Below, one piece after another: positions 1-5,593 of a stretch of 6,261 nt of DNA. The notes beneath the pieces are model-generated. The model worked only from the letters and a program-made list of their open reading frames with translations, ran no database searches and had not been told where the DNA came from. Position 1 is the stretch's first letter, and each line of letters opens with the position of its first letter. Origin of the DNA: Burkholderiales bacterium (GTDB lineage Bacteria > Pseudomonadota > Gammaproteobacteria > Burkholderiales > Burkholderiaceae); the NCBI GenBank assembly GCA_903643055.1, contig CAHJWV010000339.1:1-6261 (forward strand), in the 5' to 3' direction. The translations under genes and the position numbers were made by a program.

Positions 1-315
1 GCTTTGCGGAAGTGGCGTTCCAGTAGCCCGGGGCTGAGAGTGCGCAGGCCTTTGGCCGATCGGTATGGTCAGGGCCTGCGCCATCGTTCAGGCCGATCCG
101 TGAACTGCGCGCTCAAAAATCGGCACACCTGCGTCGCGGCAGTCAGAGATCTGCAACTCTTCACCAAGACCGCTGCTTATGACGACCACGTCTCCGCCGG
201 CTTCAAGCGTTTCGGTTGAAACGCTTGAAGCGGTGGCCAATGCGCGGCGTGGTTCACGGCCAAGCCCCATCACCCTTCAAATACCGCCTTTGTTGCACCG
301 GAATATCATCGAGAC
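1..315. other. Left-edge region with no recognised gene
   Basis: I see no gene I can name here. On the - strand, one reading phase is open from the ATG at 270 to the window edge, broken only by a TGA at 88-90. It would encode a 60-aa piece (GTG/ATG start at 273/270) and then a frame from an ATG at 84 running off the edge. The same codon phase is also open on the + strand to 219, so the openness may only reflect high GC. A perfect 14-bp inverted repeat at 200-231 lies inside both frames, which argues against coding. A weak sigma70-like pair (TTCACG 253-258, 18-bp spacer, TCAAAT 277-282) could drive the + strand gene at 316, but it is low quality. Confidence 0.4.
200..231. repeat. Perfect 14-bp inverted repeat with 4-nt loop
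   Basis: The left arm GCTTCAAGCGTTTC (200-213) is exactly complementary to the right arm GAAACGCTTGAAGC (218-231), with the loop GGTT between them. No T-run follows on either strand, so it does not look like an intrinsic terminator. It sits about 85 bp upstream of the start of the cysteine-rich gene at 316 and upstream of its weak candidate promoter. It could therefore be an operator dyad, an RNA hairpin, or a remnant of a repeated element. The symmetry is seen directly; the role is unknown. Confidence 0.85.
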
Positions 316-597
316 ATGCGCAAGTTGATTGCCGTCCTCGTGGTGCTGCTCGGCTGCCTAACCTTTGTTGGGCAGTCGGTCGCGAGCGTTTCAGCCGGCT
401 ACAGTGATTGCTGCCTTCAGGGCTGCAAAGGCATGGCCCATTGCGTGAGCGCGACCTGCCAGACCTGTGCGATGCCTCAGCTGGCGCCCATGCCAGAACG
501 TTTGATCAGTGAGCCTGCGGACACGCCAGGCTGGTTGTCGACGGAAAGCCGTTTCGACGCAGGGCCGCTCAGCGGGCCGTGGACGCCCCCGGATTAG
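316..597 (+). CDS. Small exported cysteine-rich protein (unrecognised)
   Basis: This encodes a 93-aa protein that I cannot assign to a named family. It begins with a short basic N-terminus (MRK) and a hydrophobic stretch (about residues 4-20), with possible signal-peptidase sites after SVA (residue 23) or VSA (27). The exported part opens with a dense cysteine block: C32, C33, C37, C43, C48 and C51, with H42 and M40 among them. The C-terminal 40 residues are Pro-rich and lack Cys. A thiol block like this suggests metal(loid) binding or disulfides in the periplasm. CzcI-like small periplasmic proteins near metal-efflux genes are a loose comparison only. The sequence LLGC (11-14) resembles a lipobox but comes too early. 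The Shine-Dalgarno is weak (GAG, 4 nt before the ATG). The 42-aa cysteine-rich peptide follows after 45 bp on the same strand, so the two are probably one transcript. Confidence 0.7.
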   Translation: MRKLIAVLVVLLGCLTFVGQSVASVSAGYSDCCLQGCKGMAHCVSATCQTCAMPQLAPMPERLISEPADTPGWLSTESRFDAGPLSGPWTPPD

Positions 598-642
598 GTC
601 GATGTCTTACGTCACCCACTCATCAACATTCCAAGGACATCC

Positions 643-771
643 ATGAAATCCAAGCTCATCAAGATCAGCGCGGCCATCGTGCTGCTGGGCGGCTCGGCCG
701 CTGCGTTCGCCGCTCAGGCGTGCTGTGGCGACCTTGCCTGCTGTATCCAACACCTTCTGTGCTGCCTCTAA
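643..771 (+). CDS. Tiny exported peptide with three CC pairs
   Basis: This 42-aa ORF has a good Shine-Dalgarno (AAGGA 633-637, 5 nt before ATG). Residues 1-23 form a classic signal peptide: MKSKLIK basic end, hydrophobic core, AFA cleavage motif. The predicted mature peptide is AQACCGDLACCIQHLLCCL, 19 residues with six cysteines in three pairs (C27-C28, C33-C34, C40-C41) and one His (H37). The pairs recur every 6-7 residues, so in a helix they would fall roughly on one face. That suits thiolate binding of a soft metal or As(III), or several disulfides. The function is inferred and I do not recognise the family. The stop TAA is followed directly by a hairpin and then an intrinsic terminator, as expected for the last gene of a short operon with the gene at 316. 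Its base use matches the neighbours. Confidence 0.75.
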   Translation: MKSKLIKISAAIVLLGGSAAAFAAQACCGDLACCIQHLLCCL

Positions 772-791
772 GGTCTCACTGAATTGAGACC
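772..791 (+). repeat. Hairpin directly after the 42-aa peptide gene
   Basis: GGTCTCA (772-778) and TGAGACC (785-791) form a perfect 7-bp stem with a 6-nt loop. It starts at the first base after the TAA stop and abuts the terminator hairpin. It may protect the 3' end of the small mRNA; that role is inferred. Confidence 0.6.
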
Positions 792-792
792 G

Positions 793-817
793 GGCCGGCG
801 CAATGCGCCGGCCTTTT
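793..817 (+). terminator. Intrinsic terminator of the cysteine-rich gene pair
   Basis: GGCCGGCGC (793-801) pairs perfectly with GCGCCGGCC (805-813) around a 3-nt loop, and TTTT (814-817) follows on the + strand. This is a strong GC stem with a short U-tract, placed 21 bp after the stop of the 42-aa peptide gene. On the - strand no T-run follows the stem, so it would not obviously terminate the convergent ars operon, for which I see no clear intrinsic terminator. Confidence 0.8.
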
Positions 818-908
818 GCTTTGAAGTTGCCGTGCTTCACGCGATGGCCGTGAACGCTGTGGGCACCCTTGGCAGGTGATCTCAGGCTGAACCGCCACCC
901 GCCCAGAT

Positions 909-1640
909 TCATATCGAACCCTGGTTCACGCGTTTGGACAGTTCATCGGCGCTCTCCTTGCGCTCGCTGTAGCGGTCCACCAGGTAGGGACCGAGGTCGC
1001 GCGTCAGCAACGTGAACTTGAAGAGTTCTTCCATCACGTCGACAACGCGGTCGTAGAACGACGACGGCTTCATGCGGCCATCTTCATTGAACTCTGCGAA
1101 GGCCTGGGCTACCGATGACTGGTTGGGGATCGTCAGCATGCGCATCCAGCGGCCAAGCACGCGCAGCTGGTTGACCGCATTGAACGACTGTGAGCCGCCC
1201 GACACCTGCATCACGGCCAATGTCTTGCCCTGTGTGGGCCGCACCGAGCCCGATGACAGCGGAATCCAGTCGATCTGCGCCTTCATGATGCCCGTCATGG
1301 CGCCGTGGCGCTCCGGCGAGCACCACACCATGCCTTCGGACCAAGCGGCCAGCTCGCGCAGCTCCTGCACCTTGGGGTGGCTTGCAGGGGCGTCATCAGG
1401 CAAGGGCAAGCCGCTCGGGTTGAAGATGCGCACCTCGGCACCCATGGCTTCCAGCAGGCGGGCGGCTTCGAAGGTCAGCAGGCGGCTGTAGGAGCGTTCG
1501 CGCAAAGAGCCGTAAAGCATCAGCAAACGCGGCCGGTGCTGGGACGGGGCCGGCCTCGTCAGGCGGTCCTGGGTCGGCACGTCGAAAAGGTCTGCGCGCA
1601 GCGCCGGCAAGCTGGCGTCGGGAAACAGCCGCTCAGACAT
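909..1640 (-). CDS. arsH: ArsH, FMN-dependent organoarsenical oxidase
   Basis: This encodes a 243-aa flavodoxin-fold protein of the NADPH-dependent FMN reductase superfamily. ArsH enzymes oxidise trivalent organoarsenicals to less toxic pentavalent forms and can reduce flavin, in the cytoplasm. Visible hallmarks are the FMN-phosphate loop [10 protein letters not shown] (residues 44-53), the family signature [20 protein letters not shown] (108-127), and the SGGSQSFN segment (147-154). Length fits the family. I chose the ATG at 1640. An in-frame GTG at 1652 is possible, but a GGTGAGG stretch that can act as ribosome binding site lies just before the ATG. The start overlaps the end of the aquaporin gene by 8 nt (ATGTCTGA), indicating translational coupling. 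It is the last gene of the operon. Confidence 0.95.
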
Positions 1641-2322
1641 GGTCAGCCTCACCAGGCGCCCGGCCTGTGGTCTTGGCCGTCGACGCCGACAGCAGGTGCT
1701 GCACGCCGACCGCCAGCGCGGCGCCGATCAGCTCGGCGATCACGAAACCAGGGGCGCTCACCGGCGCGATGCCCGCGAAGCTTTCGCTGAACATGCGGCC
1801 GAAGACCGCGGCGGGGTTCGCGAACGACGTGGACGCCGTGAACCAGTAGGCTGCGCCGATGTAGGCCGCCACCATCGCAGCCACACGCGAGGGCGGCGCC
1901 CGCAGGATCACCAGCAACAGCCCGAAGGTCGCCACGGCCTCGGCAATCCACTGCCCGGTACCGCTGCGCAGATGGGTCGAGAACTGCAGGATGCTCATGT
2001 CGAACATCGCATGGGACAGCCAGGCACCGAGCATGGCGCCGAATAACTGGGCGGCGATGTACGGCAGCAGCGCGGCCAGTGGCAGCTCGCCCCGCCAAGC
2101 CATGACGGCGCTCACCGCCGGGTTGAAGTGGGCGCCGCTGACGGGGCCAAACACCTCGATCAGCACGTAGAGCCCACCGACGGTGGCCAGCGTGTTGGCC
2201 AACAACGCGACAGCGACATTGCCGCCGGACAGGCGCTCGGCCATGACGCCTGAACCGATCACGACCGCCAGTAGCAGCGCGGTGCCCAGGCCTTCGGCGA
2301 GAAGCTTGCGGGGCAGGCTCAT
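1633..2322 (-). CDS. aqpS: AqpS-type aquaporin, arsenite channel
   Basis: This is a 229-aa MIP-family channel in the inner membrane with about six hydrophobic segments. It has both pore motifs: HFNPAVS (NPA at residues 67-69) and [11 protein letters not shown] (NPA at 169-171). Its place between arsC and arsH matches the AqpS role known from Sinorhizobium meliloti. There arsenite made by ArsC leaves the cell by downhill flow through the channel, with no pump needed. The residue directly after the second NPA is Ala172, not the Arg that narrows the filter of most aquaporins; this fits a wider metalloid-permeable pore (inference). The start at 2322 lies 2 nt after the arsC stop. The frame is open further upstream inside arsC, but translation from there would add a low-complexity tail unlike any MIP protein. 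The 3' end overlaps arsH by 8 nt. Confidence 0.93.
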
Positions 2323-2324
2323 GC

Positions 2325-2828
2325 TCAGCTCTTGCCAATCTCGATCAGAGCCTGCTGCAGCTCGCTCTTGCTCAGGTCCTCCAACGGCAATTGCAGAAGC
2401 TGCAGCATGCGGTAGCCGACGGCCTGGCGCGTCAGCTCGAATGCGCGGCGCTTGCTTTCGTCGCCACCCTCGGCGTTCGACGGATCCGGATAGCCCCAAT
2501 GCACCTTGACCGGCTGGCCGTTGCCGCCAAAGAAGACCGGGCATGGCTCGGCTGCGGCGCTATCGCAGACGGTGATGACGATGGACAGCGGCGGCGCACC
2601 GTCCTGGCTGAACCGGTCCCAGCTCTTGCTGAAGTAGCCGCTGGTGTCGATGCCGGCGTTCTGCAGCGCTTCGACGGCAAAGGGGTTGATGCGGCCGCTC
2701 GGGGCGCTGCCGGCGCTGTGCGCCTGCACGTCCTTGCCGAGCTTCTTCGCCCAGTGGTTGAGCATGCCTTCACTGAGGACGCTGCGGGCGGAGTTGTGCG
2801 TGCAGAGGAAGAGAACGTGTGTCGTCAT
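2325..2828 (-). CDS. arsC: Arsenate reductase, LMW-phosphatase type
   Basis: This 167-aa protein reduces arsenate to arsenite in the cytoplasm. It has the low-molecular-weight phosphatase anion loop CTHNSARS (C9 to R15/S16), the family-typical TVCDSAAAEPCP with candidate redox cysteines C88 and C96, and D115 in the YPDPS segment as likely general acid. The three-cysteine layout resembles thioredoxin-coupled enzymes such as plasmid pI258 ArsC; whether thioredoxin or glutaredoxin is the partner cannot be told from sequence alone. The ATG at 2828 has no visible Shine-Dalgarno (GACCCCTCGCA precedes it). A small open frame ends 9 nt upstream, so arsC may rely on translational coupling. The aquaporin gene starts 2 nt after its stop. 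Confidence 0.95.
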   Translation of the reverse strand: MTTHVLFLCTHNSARSVLSEGMLNHWAKKLGKDVQAHSAGSAPSGRINPFAVEALQNAGIDTSGYFSKSWDRFSQDGAPPLSIVITVCDSAAAEPCPVFFGGNGQPVKVHWGYPDPSNAEGGDESKRRAFELTRQAVGYRMLQLLQLPLEDLSKSELQQALIEIGKS

Positions 2829-2837
2829 TGCGAGGGG

Positions 2838-2949
2838 TCAGCGAGTGCCGATTTGTTGAGTCTCGTGCTGGATGGCGAAGGGCTCCAGCTGGGTGATGGC
2901 CGTGCCCGCAGCAGCTCTATGCAGCGCCGTTGGGGGTGTTGTCGAGCAT
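2838..2949 (-). pseudogene. Possible frameshifted small ORF between arsR and arsC
   Basis: The 139-bp gap between arsR and arsC is not featureless. On the - strand an ATG at 2949 has a good Shine-Dalgarno (GAGG, 5 nt before it), but its frame stops after 10 codons (MLDNTPNGAA) at 2917-2919. Removing one C from the C5 run (2932-2936) would give a continuous 36-aa frame ending TQLEPFAIQHETQQIGTR at the TGA at 2838-2840, only 9 nt before arsC. The same end frame is also open without any shift from a GTG at 2978 that overlaps arsR, giving 46 aa. It may be a broken small gene, a slippage site, a sequencing error, or chance. I do not recognise the peptide. Confidence 0.22.
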
Positions 2950-2967
2950 GGGAACCTCGGGTGGGAG

Positions 2968-3294
2968 TCAGCAAGCACAGGAAGCGGCGCTGCTCTCGAC
3001 AACGCAAGCCTCGCCCTGGCAGCAGTTCTGGGTCAGGTAGCCGAGCAGCGCGTTCATCCGCTCGTAGTTGGCGCGGTAGATCAGGTTGCGGCTGACGCGT
3101 TCCTGCGTGACAAGGCCGGCGTTGACGAGTTCCTTCAGGTGGAAGGACAGCGTCGCTGGCGGCGTGCCCAGCGCCTCTTGGATGGCGCCCGGGGTCAGAC
3201 CGGGCGCTCCGACCACCACAAGCGCACGAAAAACCTGCAGACGCAAAGGCTGCGCCAATGCAGTAAGGCCGTTGATGACTTCTTTATCTTCCAT
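2968..3294 (-). CDS. arsR: ArsR-family As(III)-responsive repressor
   Basis: This 108-aa winged-helix dimeric repressor has a typical length. The recognition-helix region is TPPATLSFHLKELVNAGLV (about 44-62), preceded by the ALAQPLRLQVFRAL helix. It lacks the classic CVC motif in the alpha3 helix seen in R773 ArsR. Instead it has C91, C92 and C97 near the C-terminus, the arrangement of the Acidithiobacillus ferrooxidans-type As(III) site, plus a tail with C106 and C108. The ATG at 3294 was chosen because the frame upstream runs through the operator palindrome. No Shine-Dalgarno is visible, and the predicted transcription start coincides with the ATG, so the mRNA may be leaderless. It heads the arsC-aqpS-arsH operon and should repress it, releasing DNA when As(III) binds. 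Confidence 0.93.
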   Translation of the reverse strand: MEDKEVINGLTALAQPLRLQVFRALVVVGAPGLTPGAIQEALGTPPATLSFHLKELVNAGLVTQERVSRNLIYRANYERMNALLGYLTQNCCQGEACVVESSAASCAC

Positions 3295-3442: not shown

Positions 3443-4624
3443 TCAAGGCGTCAGCGCATCGACCTGCTGCTGGGCCTCGTTGACGTCTTTGCTCAGCTCG
3501 GTGAGATAGCGATCGCGTTCCTCGCTGCGCCATTCGGCATCGGAAAAACTGGCCAGCGCATAGGTCTGGCTGGTGTGAATGATGCCGGCCTGGCGGGCCA
3601 TCATCGAACGGTCGGGATAGCGGTCGGGCAGCAGCAGAAAGCCCTGCACATCACGCAGGCTCAGCGGAAATCCCGGCTTGCCGTCACGCACCAGCTTGCC
3701 AAACAGCGGCAGGCGAAACTCCTGCATGCCCGCCGGCATTTCGTCATTGAAGTTCAACAGCGCAAATGGCTTGCCAGTGGCGTCGTCCACCCGGGCGCTG
3801 ATGACATAACGGCCCGCCTGAGTGATCTTGGCTTTCAGGTAGAAATTGAGCGAGCCGGCCTCCAACGCCTCGCGCACGCCGGCCCATTCCGCAGGAATCT
3901 GCGGGTTGTAGACGACGTCGAAGTACACATTGCCGAGCTGCCCGTTCTGGTTCAGATAGACCTGGGTTCGGATCGTGCCGGCAAAGTCGGCGAAGCCTGC
4001 GGTCGCGGGCTGCAGCGTGGCACTCAACACATGGTCGGGCGAACCGCTGTCGATGAAGCTCACCACCGCCTGCGGCCTGCCGATCACCTGGCGCGGGTCG
4101 GGTAAATCAAACGCCGAAGCACGGGTGGCCAGCAATGGCAGCGGGGCGCCGTTGTCATCGACGGCCCGCACGGTGAAGCTCACGGTCTCGCTGCCGCCGG
4201 CAAAAATGCGGTCTTGTGTGGTGCGGATTCGAACGCCTTTGACCGGCTCGCCACCGGGGGAGCGCAGCGGCATGCTTTCAGCGACAGGATCGAAGGGCCG
4301 CTGCTGATCGGAATGTTCAGCGATCGGGCGCGCCTCAGGGGGATAACGCGTCGAAGCCTTGTAGCTCTCAAGCGTGTCTTGTGCGCGGACCAGCCGGTCT
4401 TTCCAAATCACCCGTTGCTCTTGCCGGCGACGCACCGCTTCATCGTTATAGGGAGCGCGACTTTCGGTGTGCGGCACCGATGCGGCCGGGGCTCGCGCAG
4501 ACGCTGCCGCGACAGGCTCGTCTGCAGGCGCGGCCCGGCCGGTCAGCAGCACACCCAACACCACTGCAACCGCCACGATGCCCAACACCGTCGCGGCCGC
4601 CGTTGACTTCCCGGGCTTCTTCAT
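3443..4624 (-). CDS. Membrane-anchored beta-rich envelope protein (unknown)
   Basis: I do not recognise this 393-aa protein. Residues 1-10 are basic, 11-28 form a single hydrophobic signal-anchor, and 31-58 are an Ala/Pro-rich linker, so the bulk should lie in the periplasm. Next come a charged helix-like stretch (61-88), a conspicuous Pro-rich segment STRYPPEARPIAEHSDQQRP (91-110), and two beta-rich parts (about 128-240 and 255-335) with Ig-like strand patterning (VSFTVRAVDDNGAPLP, GRYVISARVDDATG). It ends in a charged C-terminal helix (361-392). There is no cysteine, unlike its upstream neighbour. The Shine-Dalgarno AGGAG lies 9 nt before the ATG. It starts 78 bp after the stop of the hydrolase-like gene on the same strand, so the two are probably co-transcribed. 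The next gene downstream is arsR, 148 bp away with its own promoter, so a link to arsenic is not implied. Confidence 0.8.
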   Translation of the reverse strand: MKKPGKSTAAATVLGIVAVAVVLGVLLTGRAAPADEPVAAASARAPAASVPHTESRAPYNDEAVRRRQEQRVIWKDRLVRAQDTLESYKASTRYPPEARPIAEHSDQQRPFDPVAESMPLRSPGGEPVKGVRIRTTQDRIFAGGSETVSFTVRAVDDNGAPLPLLATRASAFDLPDPRQVIGRPQAVVSFIDSGSPDHVLSATLQPATAGFADFAGTIRTQVYLNQNGQLGNVYFDVVYNPQIPAEWAGVREALEAGSLNFYLKAKITQAGRYVISARVDDATGKPFALLNFNDEMPAGMQEFRLPLFGKLVRDGKPGFPLSLRDVQGFLLLPDRYPDRSMMARQAGIIHTSQTYALASFSDAEWRSEERDRYLTELSKDVNEAQQQVDALTP

Positions 4625-4654
4625 GCACTCAATCTCCTGGCCCCAAGAGGCGAA

Positions 4655-4678
4655 CGCCCCAGGCTCGATGCCGGGGCG
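4655..4678 (-). repeat. Intergenic hairpin between the two envelope genes
   Basis: Read on the - strand, CGCCCC-GGC (4678-4670) pairs with GCC-T-GGGGCG (4664-4655) around a 5-nt loop: nine pairs with one bulged T. No T-run follows, so it is not a standard intrinsic terminator. It lies 30 nt before the downstream start and could tune mRNA stability or expression of the second gene relative to the first. Confidence 0.5.
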
Positions 4679-4702
4679 ATGTCTTGCGCCGGCCCGGGCG
4701 CC

Positions 4703-5593
4703 TCAACGGGCGTAGGTTTGCATGTCGGCGCGAACCTTCGACGTGACACCTTCCCACTTCTGGTTGGTGCGGTGGCTGAAGGCTTCGGCATCGTCACGGA
4801 ATTCAACCGAGTGCCAGCTCCACTTCGACGTACCGTTTTCGTTTTTCGCGGTGCCCAGCGTCAGGTCGTTGCACAACCAGTTGCCTGGGTTGCAGTAGTT
4901 GCCACCCGATGAGCCGGAAACACCACCGCTGGAGTGATAGGCCACGGCCTCGTCATCCTGGCCGGGCAGCACGAACGAATAGGCCGTGCCCTTGGCACCC
5001 GCGTACATGTAGAACCAGGTCGAACGGGTATTGTTGTGGTCGTACAAGGCCCGTGCGGTACTGGTCTTCAGATCCGACACCAAAGGCTCCGACACCGCCC
5101 AATCGCCCACATCCGACAGTTCGCTGCCCCCGCCCGCACCTGCAGCCACCCGCACCCATTTGATGTTCCAGCCGGTCTGCGTACCACCGTCACTGTTCGA
5201 ACACTCACCATTCGAACCCGCTACCGGATTCTTCTTGTAGCGGGCGGTGCCGCCATACAGCGACAGCGTATAACCGATCATCAGATCGCCAGCGCTGTGC
5301 GCCGCCACGTAACACCAGTTCGGGCCGGTGCAGTGGCAATCGAGTGCATTGCGAACCAAATAGTTCTGGTCGGCAATGTGGCTGACGCCATCCCAGTTGA
5401 CCGACTTCTTGTTGACACCGGCTTCGGTGCCCGCAGGGCCCCAATAGGTGAAGTCGGCATAGTTTCCGGCGACACCGCTTTTGCTGGTACGACCATTGAT
5501 CCACAGCGAATAGTTGGTGGCCAGCGCCGCCGTGGCCAGCGTGACCAGCACACCACCGAACATCCAAAAACCAACGCGAACGGATGGACGCAT
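4703..5593 (-). CDS. Secreted six-cysteine protein, possible alpha/beta hydrolase
   Basis: This encodes 296 aa with a signal peptide (MRPSVRVGFW..., core to about residue 22, cleavage likely after ALA at 25). The mature protein has six cysteines (C86, C88, C94, C131, C234, C241), pointing to disulfides outside the cytoplasm. The segment CYVAAHSAGDLMIGY (94-108) looks like a lipase/esterase nucleophile elbow, with S100 in A-H-S-A-G. NYSLWINGRTSKSG (27-40) could supply an oxyanion-hole strand, and D213/D214 with H220 in GQDDEAVAYHSSGG could complete a Ser-Asp-His triad. This is a motif-level inference: the usual first Gly of GxSxG is Ala, and I cannot name a family. It is rich in Gly, Ser, Asn and Trp. 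A strong Shine-Dalgarno (AGAGGAG, about 7 nt before ATG) fixes the start. The anchored protein gene follows 78 bp downstream. Confidence 0.8.
   Translation of the reverse strand: MRPSVRVGFWMFGGVLVTLATAALATNYSLWINGRTSKSGVAGNYADFTYWGPAGTEAGVNKKSVNWDGVSHIADQNYLVRNALDCHCTGPNWCYVAAHSAGDLMIGYTLSLYGGTARYKKNPVAGSNGECSNSDGGTQTGWNIKWVRVAAGAGGGSELSDVGDWAVSEPLVSDLKTSTARALYDHNNTRSTWFYMYAGAKGTAYSFVLPGQDDEAVAYHSSGGVSGSSGGNYCNPGNWLCNDLTLGTAKNENGTSKWSWHSVEFRDDAEAFSHRTNQKWEGVTSKVRADMQTYAR

What the first reader, a model, noticed from the sequence alone, without database searches (positions are those of the whole stretch)
643..771. A 19-residue exported peptide with three CC pairs
Seen: a 42-codon ORF with a good Shine-Dalgarno, a clear signal peptide, and a mature part in which 6 of 19 residues are Cys, arranged CC-x4-CC-x5-CC with one His. 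It is below the length cut-off of most gene callers. Inference: the pairs could line up on one helix face as a thiolate site for As(III), Cu or a similar soft metal, or form a compact disulfide peptide. A secreted metallothionein-like peptide of this size would be unusual.
Basis: partly seen in the sequence, partly recalled or inferred. Interest (0 to 1): 0.72.

Follow-up and report, generated by a model that had tools for sequence, protein, structure and literature searches.

The report
Exported CC-pair peptide with sensor-like uORF
A real, conserved 42-residue exported peptide whose three cysteine pairs are kept in over a hundred relatives is nearly always made from a tiny two-gene unit whose first gene looks like a metal sensor that works while it is being translated, so this is probably a very small, self-regulated system for binding a toxic thiol-loving metal or metalloid outside the cell.

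Summary
The 42-codon ORF (643-771) is real. Relatives occur in Roseateles/Pelomonas, Ideonella, Aquabacterium, Aquincola and Duganella. The three CC pairs are kept in 117 of 119 database proteins and 54 of 55 loci, and the mature part is under purifying selection. No Pfam or NCBIfam family claims it.

In 50 of 55 loci the ORF just upstream (window 316-597) encodes a second exported-looking Cys-rich protein with a C-terminal WxPP (WxPPD-stop in 41 of 50). A cysteine lies 36-41 residues before that Trp in all 50, although the linker is only 15-26% identical. A -10-like box sits 5-7 nt before its ATG in 32 of 48, with almost no Shine-Dalgarno, so its mRNA is probably leaderless. In many loci a hairpin follows its stop codon. 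This is the architecture of CutF/CruR copper-sensing uORFs, without detectable homology to DUF2946.

Best reading: a nascent-chain thiol-metal sensor controls an exported metal(loid)-binding peptide. The metal is unknown: arsH lies within about 5 kb in 6 of 56 loci scanned, window included; published precedent is copper. CutF-style unmasking of the Shine-Dalgarno is not supported. Nothing was tested at the bench.

The parts
304..309 (+). -10-like box TATCAT, six bases before the uORF ATG; predicts that transcription starts at the A of the ATG (leaderless mRNA)
   Evidence: Such a box 5-7 nt before the ATG in 32 of 48 loci (27 at exactly 6 nt) against 22 of 3429 background ATGs (start choice favoured a box where several ATGs were possible)
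316..597 (+). uORF: 93-residue exported-looking Cys-rich protein, sensor-like, ends WTPPD-stop
   Evidence: Directly upstream in 50 of 55 loci; uORF-first search: 8 of 8 places have a CC peptide next
409..468 (+). Cys cluster of the uORF, CC-x3-C-x5-C-x4-C-x2-C (residues 32-51), putative metal site
   Evidence: A Cys lies 36-41 residues before the Trp in 50 of 50; C33 and C48 invariant in A3
580..594 (+). C-terminal WTPPD, putative translation-arrest motif
   Evidence: W, P, P invariant in 38 aligned uORFs (they were picked for W.PP); WxPPD-stop in 41 of 50
598..627 (+). Intergenic hairpin position (arms 598-604 and 621-627; one C.A mismatch in the window) between uORF stop and SD
   Evidence: 40 loci: mean MFE -5.84 against -3.65 in shuffles, 0 of 300 reach it; covariation in a five-member Duganella-type subset
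601..641 (+). Alternative, more stable fold in the window: 601-608 pairs with 634-641 and covers the SD (excludes the hairpin)
   Evidence: -7.0 against -2.6 kcal/mol; ensemble calculation shows only a small effect of blocking it, SD unpaired 0.51 to 0.56
633..637 (+). Shine-Dalgarno AAGGA of the CC peptide
   Evidence: Sequence; SD-like in 52 of 55 loci before the peptide, 4 of 48 before the uORF
643..771 (+). CC peptide, 42 codons; signal peptide 643-711, mature 712-768 (cleavage by eye)
772..817 (+). Double hairpin and T run, terminator of the two-gene unit
   Evidence: z -5.1
909..1628 (-). arsH, convergent neighbour (not part of the unit; same arrangement in G725 and G709)
   Evidence: TIGR02690 411.7 bits, cut-off 292

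Best explanation
Positions 304-817 are a self-contained two-gene unit. A short promoter starts a leaderless mRNA at the ATG of a 93-residue uORF. Its product is threaded out through Sec while its last residues (WTPPD) are still in the ribosome; the Cys cluster, about 40 residues upstream, then emerges outside the membrane or in the translocon. Binding of a thiophilic metal or metalloid by that cluster changes how long the ribosome stays on PPD-stop, and so sets how often the mRNA goes on to yield the second product. That product is the CC peptide, exported and cleaved to about 19 residues, whose three vicinal Cys pairs bind the same metal in the periplasm or outside. Shown: both ORFs, their linkage, the nearly constant spacing, the WxPPD end, the promoter-like box, the hairpin signal and the purifying selection. 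Inferred: export, leaderless start, arrest, metal sensing, metal binding, and that metal increases peptide output. How the stalled ribosome acts on the second gene (reinitiation past the intergenic hairpin, Rho, or SD release) is open. Metal: As(III) or Cu(I), undecided.
For: Linkage in both directions: uORF in 50 of 55 peptide loci, and a CC peptide after 8 of 8 uORF places found by a uORF-only search, one of which, L090, is a divergent peptide met only through its uORF. Neighbour clustering over 55 loci (25 synteny groups) puts the uORF first with 6 groups; no other gene reaches more than 3. Sensor-to-end spacing nearly fixed (36-41) while the linker is 15-26% identical, the property found and tested in CruR (45 residues, within one or two) and noted in CutF (45). 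PPD was found only among pausing PPX motifs in one E. coli ribosome-profiling study. Different initiation signals for the two ORFs. Hairpin signal. In L057 and L075 no uORF is seen and a -10-like box lies directly before the peptide's own RBS (by eye), as expected if the uORF is a cis-regulator and the peptide the effector. CC pairs are the conserved part of the peptide.
Against: Masking the 14 bases from the uORF stop does not free the SD: mean P(unpaired) 0.474 to 0.494 over 49 loci, more open by over 0.1 in 7, less open in 3, and only 0.51 to 0.56 in the window, so CutF's published mechanism is not reproduced. Five of 55 loci lack the WxPP uORF (L013, L035, L038, L057, L075). No homology to DUF2946/CruR. 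Nine of 50 uORFs end otherwise than WxPPD-stop, some with up to 11 more residues. The hairpin is not universal: 17 of 40 loci have z below -1.5. Most neighbours are not metal genes. One peptide copy (L007) has lost its third CC pair, though an intact copy is in the same genome (L022).
Confidence: 0.55

Rival explanations
1. The upstream protein is not a regulator but a working periplasmic partner, for example a chaperone that loads or folds the CC peptide; the two act together as a secreted metal-handling pair.
For: Co-linear in 50 of 55 loci; both exported-looking and Cys-rich.
Against: Linker of nearly constant length but little sequence conservation, and W-x-P-P-D at the stop codon, fit an arrest peptide better; L057 and L075 have the peptide without it; no known family.
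Confidence: 0.2
2. The CC peptide is a disulfide-bonded secreted peptide (bacteriocin, signal or toxin-like) rather than a metal ligand.
For: Six cysteines in three pairs with a signal peptide would suit a disulfide peptide.
Against: No recurrent immunity, export or processing gene seen beside it; vicinal Cys pairs with varying linkers are poor templates for one disulfide pattern (inference); mature sequence conserved, not diversifying.
Confidence: 0.12
3. A bufferin-like RiPP: cysteines are modified before export by an MNIO enzyme encoded elsewhere and chelate copper.
For: Sec signal plus conserved Cys is the bufferin layout (PMC12452194, passages); MNIO genes exist in 73 of 74 Duganella-type genomes.
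Against: MNIO not seen beside the module; the nearest in the listing was about 10 kb away in one genome (G777); MNIO is as common without the module (41 of 42) as with it (32 of 32); no DUF2282 match.
Confidence: 0.08
4. Cys-codon attenuator: the CC-rich ORF is a leader whose translation senses charged tRNA-Cys and controls the terminator right after it.
For: Tandem Cys codons followed at once by hairpins and a T run; leaderless polycysteine sORFs act this way in mycobacteria (recalled; only listed papers holding the word, none read).
Against: The next called gene lies on the other strand in 35 of 55 loci and differs from locus to locus; conserved signal-peptide-like N-terminus; strong own SD.
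Confidence: 0.05

Closest known systems
CutF of Rhodobacter capsulatus and CutF-like proteins (PMC9973294)
   Same: Small Sec-exported Cys protein encoded just upstream of an exported product, proline-rich C-terminus, about 40-45 residues between Cys motif and end, stem-loop between the two genes
   Different: Target is a 42-codon CC peptide, not CutO; motif WxPPD at the stop; larger Cys cluster; probably leaderless; masking test does not show SD release
CruR / DUF2946 (PF11162; PMC9426467)
   Same: Exported uORF with Cys motif at a fixed distance from a C-terminal PP motif
   Different: No profile match, no RAPP, intergenic 45 nt in the window and 22-62 in other loci instead of 162; CruR has a transcript start 45 bp before its start codon
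Bufferins (MNIO-modified copper-binding RiPPs; PMC12452194)
   Same: Small Sec-exported Cys peptide proposed to buffer metal outside the cytoplasm
   Different: MNIO gene not seen beside it and DUF2063 beside one locus only, shorter mature part, vicinal CC pairs, no DUF2282
Bacterial metallothioneins
   Same: Very high Cys content (6 of 19) in a tiny chain
   Different: Exported; no sequence relation found in Pfam, NCBIfam or PDB sequences

Membership tests
CutF-like proteins (rule-based class of PMC9973294), for the uORF | under 150 aa, PP within the last 15 residues | tested here: met
   93 aa, WTPPD end; PP within the last 15 residues in all 50 uORFs, which were picked for W.PP
CutF-like proteins | N-terminal Sec signal peptide | tested here: inconclusive
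   Hydrophobic N-terminus seen in the alignment; no predictor run
[quoted passage not shown]
   45 nt in the window; 22-62 nt in loci (one 247 nt value there was a parsing error)
CutF (mechanism) | stem-loop that shields the SD of the next gene and is opened by the stalled ribosome | tested here: not met
   Hairpin signal present but SD accessibility barely changes on masking, over 49 loci and in the window; the window MFE fold does cover the SD
CutF (mechanism) | copper-dependent expression of the downstream product | not testable with these tools
   needs reporter fusions
DUF2946 / CruR | match to PF11162 profile | tested here: not met
   none of 38 uORFs at E <= 1; hhalign probability 0.6% against 11 DUF2946 proteins
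DUF2946 / CruR | C-terminal RAPP | tested here: not met
   WxPP instead
Bufferin | adjacent MNIO (PF05114) and DUF2063 genes | tested here: not met
   nearest-neighbour scans of 44 of 53 upstream and 50 of 55 downstream genes (each shows its top 25 of 45 and 57 families): MNIO not shown, DUF2063 in one; MNIO in 73 of 74 genomes but not linked
Metallothionein-like metal-binding peptide | binds thiophilic metal through Cys | not testable with these tools
   CC pairs conserved; binding needs the peptide
Cys-responsive attenuator | co-directional downstream gene controlled by the terminator | tested here: not met
   next called gene on the opposite strand in 35 of 55, as in the window; families not recurrent

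The most novel reading that the evidence does not exclude
The smallest regulated metal(loid)-buffering system I know of: a leaderless mRNA with just two tiny ORFs, in which a co-translationally exported thiol sensor with a new arrest motif (WxPPD-stop) controls an exported 19-residue three-CC-pair peptide, possibly an arsenite ligand. If the sensor answers arsenite, it would be an arsenic-sensing nascent chain; I know of none, but looked only through searches.
Probability: 0.35. Interest if true: 0.8.

Novelty: new variant of a known kind. Interest (0 to 1): 0.62.

Why it matters
It gives a compact, testable case of metal sensing by a nascent exported chain, with many natural variants (different arrest tails, divergent linkers of nearly fixed length, apparent deletions of the uORF). 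Its target would be a secreted peptide rather than an enzyme or transporter. It also shows that a conserved exported peptide of about 42 codons, absent from Pfam and NCBIfam, can be recognised by its partner uORF, so the class is likely under-counted.

Tried and rejected
Plasmid and phage collections: no match for the peptide, nor in plasmids for window 1-900. Window genome: none held. Rfam on window 250-900: nothing near a family's cut-off (one chance match on the terminator). PDB sequences: no match. NCBIfam and Pfam matches of the peptides are weak, none below E 0.003, and were set aside as chance or signal-peptide resemblance. PHROGs and PADLOC were not scanned.

Copper-only reading: left as unproven, since the neighbours do not point to one metal. 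ars genes as the defining partner: rejected as general. arsH lies within 5 kb in only 6 of 56 loci. Four of the six (L115, L117, L119, L120) fall into one synteny group, which the window joins through its shared genes; L114 stands apart. Presence of arsH in 29 of 32 module-bearing against 31 of 42 module-free genomes is not significant (Fisher p 0.08). Helix-face model: rejected because linker lengths vary and the model is poor. SD-unmasking: not supported, with 110 bases of upstream context, gave the window SD 0.24 unpaired, so the value depends on the stretch folded.

Whole-intergenic folding gave only a weak signal (mean z -0.53, 15 of 49 below -1.5). The stronger result (40 of 43 deredundant loci, three too short) leaves out the stop codon and the last 13 bases, a choice made. 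The five sequences and their helix were chosen after seeing folds; the measure 'pairs with a change on both sides' was not unusual there (2, reached by 173 of 500 shuffles). A second alignment of six sequences was made but not scored. Literature searches that gave nothing on this pair (listings only); the first bufferin search matched 'buffering'.

Cautions on counts: the 55 loci include the window, two copies in each of two genomes (L002/L006 and L007/L022), and close relatives. Database hits were drawn with profiles that contain the CC pairs. The uORFs were recognised by W.PP plus Cys within 450 bases. In the script the uORF start was chosen, where several ATGs were possible, to favour a TA...T box, which may inflate the 32 of 48. 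The SD scan looked 3-16 bases before the uORF and 3-18 before the peptide. L040's start was misassigned; L081's uORF was missed and recovered. The two genera sampled were chosen because they hold the module. In the order, family and phylum samples the first look scored at most 18-24 candidates per genome, so absence is weak.

Full report
WHAT IS THERE. Right after its stop come two hairpins, the second with a T run. Neither it nor 32 relatives match a Pfam or NCBIfam family above chance level, and no PDB sequence matches the profile.

IT IS CONSERVED. A single-sequence search gave three relatives; with a four-sequence profile it gave 18, including those three, and with a 33-sequence profile 112. 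One scan of the species-level genome collection gave 14 loci in 13 genomes or MAGs: Ideonella azotifigens, Pelomonas sp. Root405 (two copies), Roseateles violae, Aquabacterium parvum and commune, Aquincola tertiaricarbonis, Duganella aceris and guangzhouensis, and five MAGs (that these genera are all Burkholderiales is recalled). Of 119 database proteins fetched, 117 keep three CC pairs; the spacing is 4/5 in 53, 5/5 in 31, 4/6 in 22, and other values in 11. In 55 DNA loci, 54 keep them; the exception, L007, lost the third pair, and the same genome has an intact copy (L022). The linkers diverge: CCGDLACC, CCGSIECC, CCVAGAACC, CCDGDDCC. Among seven ungapped relatives the mature part has pN below pS in all 21 pairs, with dN/dS from about 0.03 to 0.6; the six pairs with the window give about 0.03 to 0.2 (window versus L002: dN 0.07, dS 0.95). 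The signal peptide is less constrained. Sampling found the peptide in 4 of 20 genomes of the Pelomonas-type genus and 32 of 74 of the Duganella-type genus, both chosen because they hold it; in 18 of 299 of the family at a lax cut-off, 11 of them credible; in 6 of 399 of the order, one of them not a real relative; and in 3 of 398 of the phylum, one only a signal peptide.

THE PARTNER. Each of the first 15 loci (window and L001-L014) has a second Cys-rich exported-looking ORF just upstream. In the window it is 316-597, 45 bases before the peptide. Over 55 loci, 50 have such an ORF with a C-terminal W-x-P-P. Exceptions: L013 (Cys part kept, tail lost), L035, L038, L057 and L075. Searching 150 family genomes with the uORF profile alone gave 8 places in 7 genomes; 6 were loci already known to hold a CC peptide next, and the other two (L090, L092) have one as well. 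L090 is a divergent peptide met only this way. Flanking genes otherwise differ: among 44 of 53 upstream and 50 of 55 downstream nearest genes the commonest Pfam families reach 2 and 4, and clustering of genes around 55 loci puts the uORF first with 6 of 25 synteny groups while no other gene exceeds 3. So the unit is two genes with their own terminator, set in many different places.

ANATOMY OF THE uORF. 41 of 50 end exactly in WxPPD-stop; the other nine have WxPP followed by other residues. A Cys lies 36-41 residues before the Trp in 50 of 50. Within the three commonest spacings (47 uORFs) the linker is 15-26% identical and the Cys segment 28-48%. That is expected when distance in the ribosome tunnel and translocon matters. 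In CruR the Cys-to-RAPP distance is 45 residues, conserved within one or two, and lengthening it by five strongly reduces copper control (PMC9426467, passages). In CutF the distance is 45 (PMC9973294, passages and sections 10-12). RAPP-type arrest in CruR has since been shown in vitro (PMC12992588, passages). PPD occurs only among the pausing PPX motifs in an E. coli ribosome-profiling study (PMC4140641, passages). The uORF matches no Pfam or NCBIfam family above chance and, by profile comparison, not DUF2946 (probability 0.6%), although the seven genomes tested carry DUF2946 genes.

START AND INTERGENIC REGION. A TA..[AC]T box lies 5-7 bases before the uORF ATG in 32 of 48 loci, 27 at exactly six, against 22 of 3429 background ATGs; an SD-like motif precedes the uORF in 4 of 48 but the peptide in 52 of 55. 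This predicts a leaderless uORF; the choice of start codons leaned towards the box in ambiguous cases. No -35 element stands out. Between uORF stop and peptide SD, 40 deredundant loci fold better than shuffles (mean -5.84 against -3.65, sd 0.29, 0 of 300; 17 of 40 with z below -1.5), while the window itself is unremarkable (z -0.57 over the whole intergenic stretch). A five-member Duganella-type subset, chosen after seeing folds, shows compensatory changes (covariation score 0.371 against 0.187, reached by 2 of 500 shuffles). Yet blocking the 14 bases that a ribosome at the stop would cover does not free the SD, in general (0.474 to 0.494) or in the window (0.51 to 0.56). In the window the most stable fold pairs 601-608 with 634-641 and covers the SD (-7.0 kcal/mol), in competition with the hairpin (-2.6), so a halted ribosome would sit on the 5' arm; but the ensemble calculation gives this little weight.

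WHICH METAL. The window carries an ars cluster (arsR, an arsC-like gene, a MIP-family channel gene, arsH) convergent with the unit. An ArsH homologue also lies within about 4.2 kb in five of 55 other loci scanned, some with short flanks (L114, L115, L117, L119, L120). In the Duganella-type genus arsH is nearly single copy per genome (60 of 74 genomes), so roughly 0.05 such cases would be expected by chance among 32 module-bearing genomes (my arithmetic, ignoring kinship). Two of these (G725, G709) have the same convergent order as the window. Against this, four of the five fall into one synteny group, and most loci lack ars genes. A few other neighbours look metal-related: a SCO1/SenC protein (one upstream gene, by eye that of L004), a MerR regulator beside L002, and by eye P-type ATPases near L002 and L043. 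I therefore leave As(III) and Cu(I) open.

CONCLUSION. Works like: CutF/CruR-type nascent-chain metal sensing, with an exported Cys peptide as target. Member of: the rule-based CutF-like class on most of its sequence rules (signal peptide not checked by a predictor); not of DUF2946, not of bufferins. The peptide family is unnamed in the libraries searched, and no paper on this pair was found in searches.

Noticed in passing
window 909-3294 (-): Compact ars cluster arsR, arsC-like, MIP-family channel, arsH; the ArsR ends in a Cys-rich tail (NCCQGEACVVESSAASCAC). Resembles aquaporin-type ars operons (recalled).
   Followed up: partly
L057 and L075, upstream of the peptide: Peptide gene without a detectable uORF; by eye a -10-like box lies directly before its own RBS, as if the uORF had been deleted.
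   Followed up: partly
L108:1492-1851 (-): A DUF2946 (CruR-family) gene with TATAAT exactly six bases before its ATG, i.e. possibly leaderless too; not checked systematically in other DUF2946 genes.
   Followed up: no
L060:692-1033 (+): Gene upstream of the module encodes a small Cys-rich protein resembling a four-helix copper storage protein (recalled resemblance).
   Followed up: no
L013:6745-6975 (+): uORF keeps its Cys cluster but has lost the WxPP tail; natural test of whether the tail matters.
   Followed up: no
window 3443-5593 (-): Two long ORFs with N-terminal hydrophobic stretches (393 and 296 aa) and no family above cut-off.
   Followed up: no
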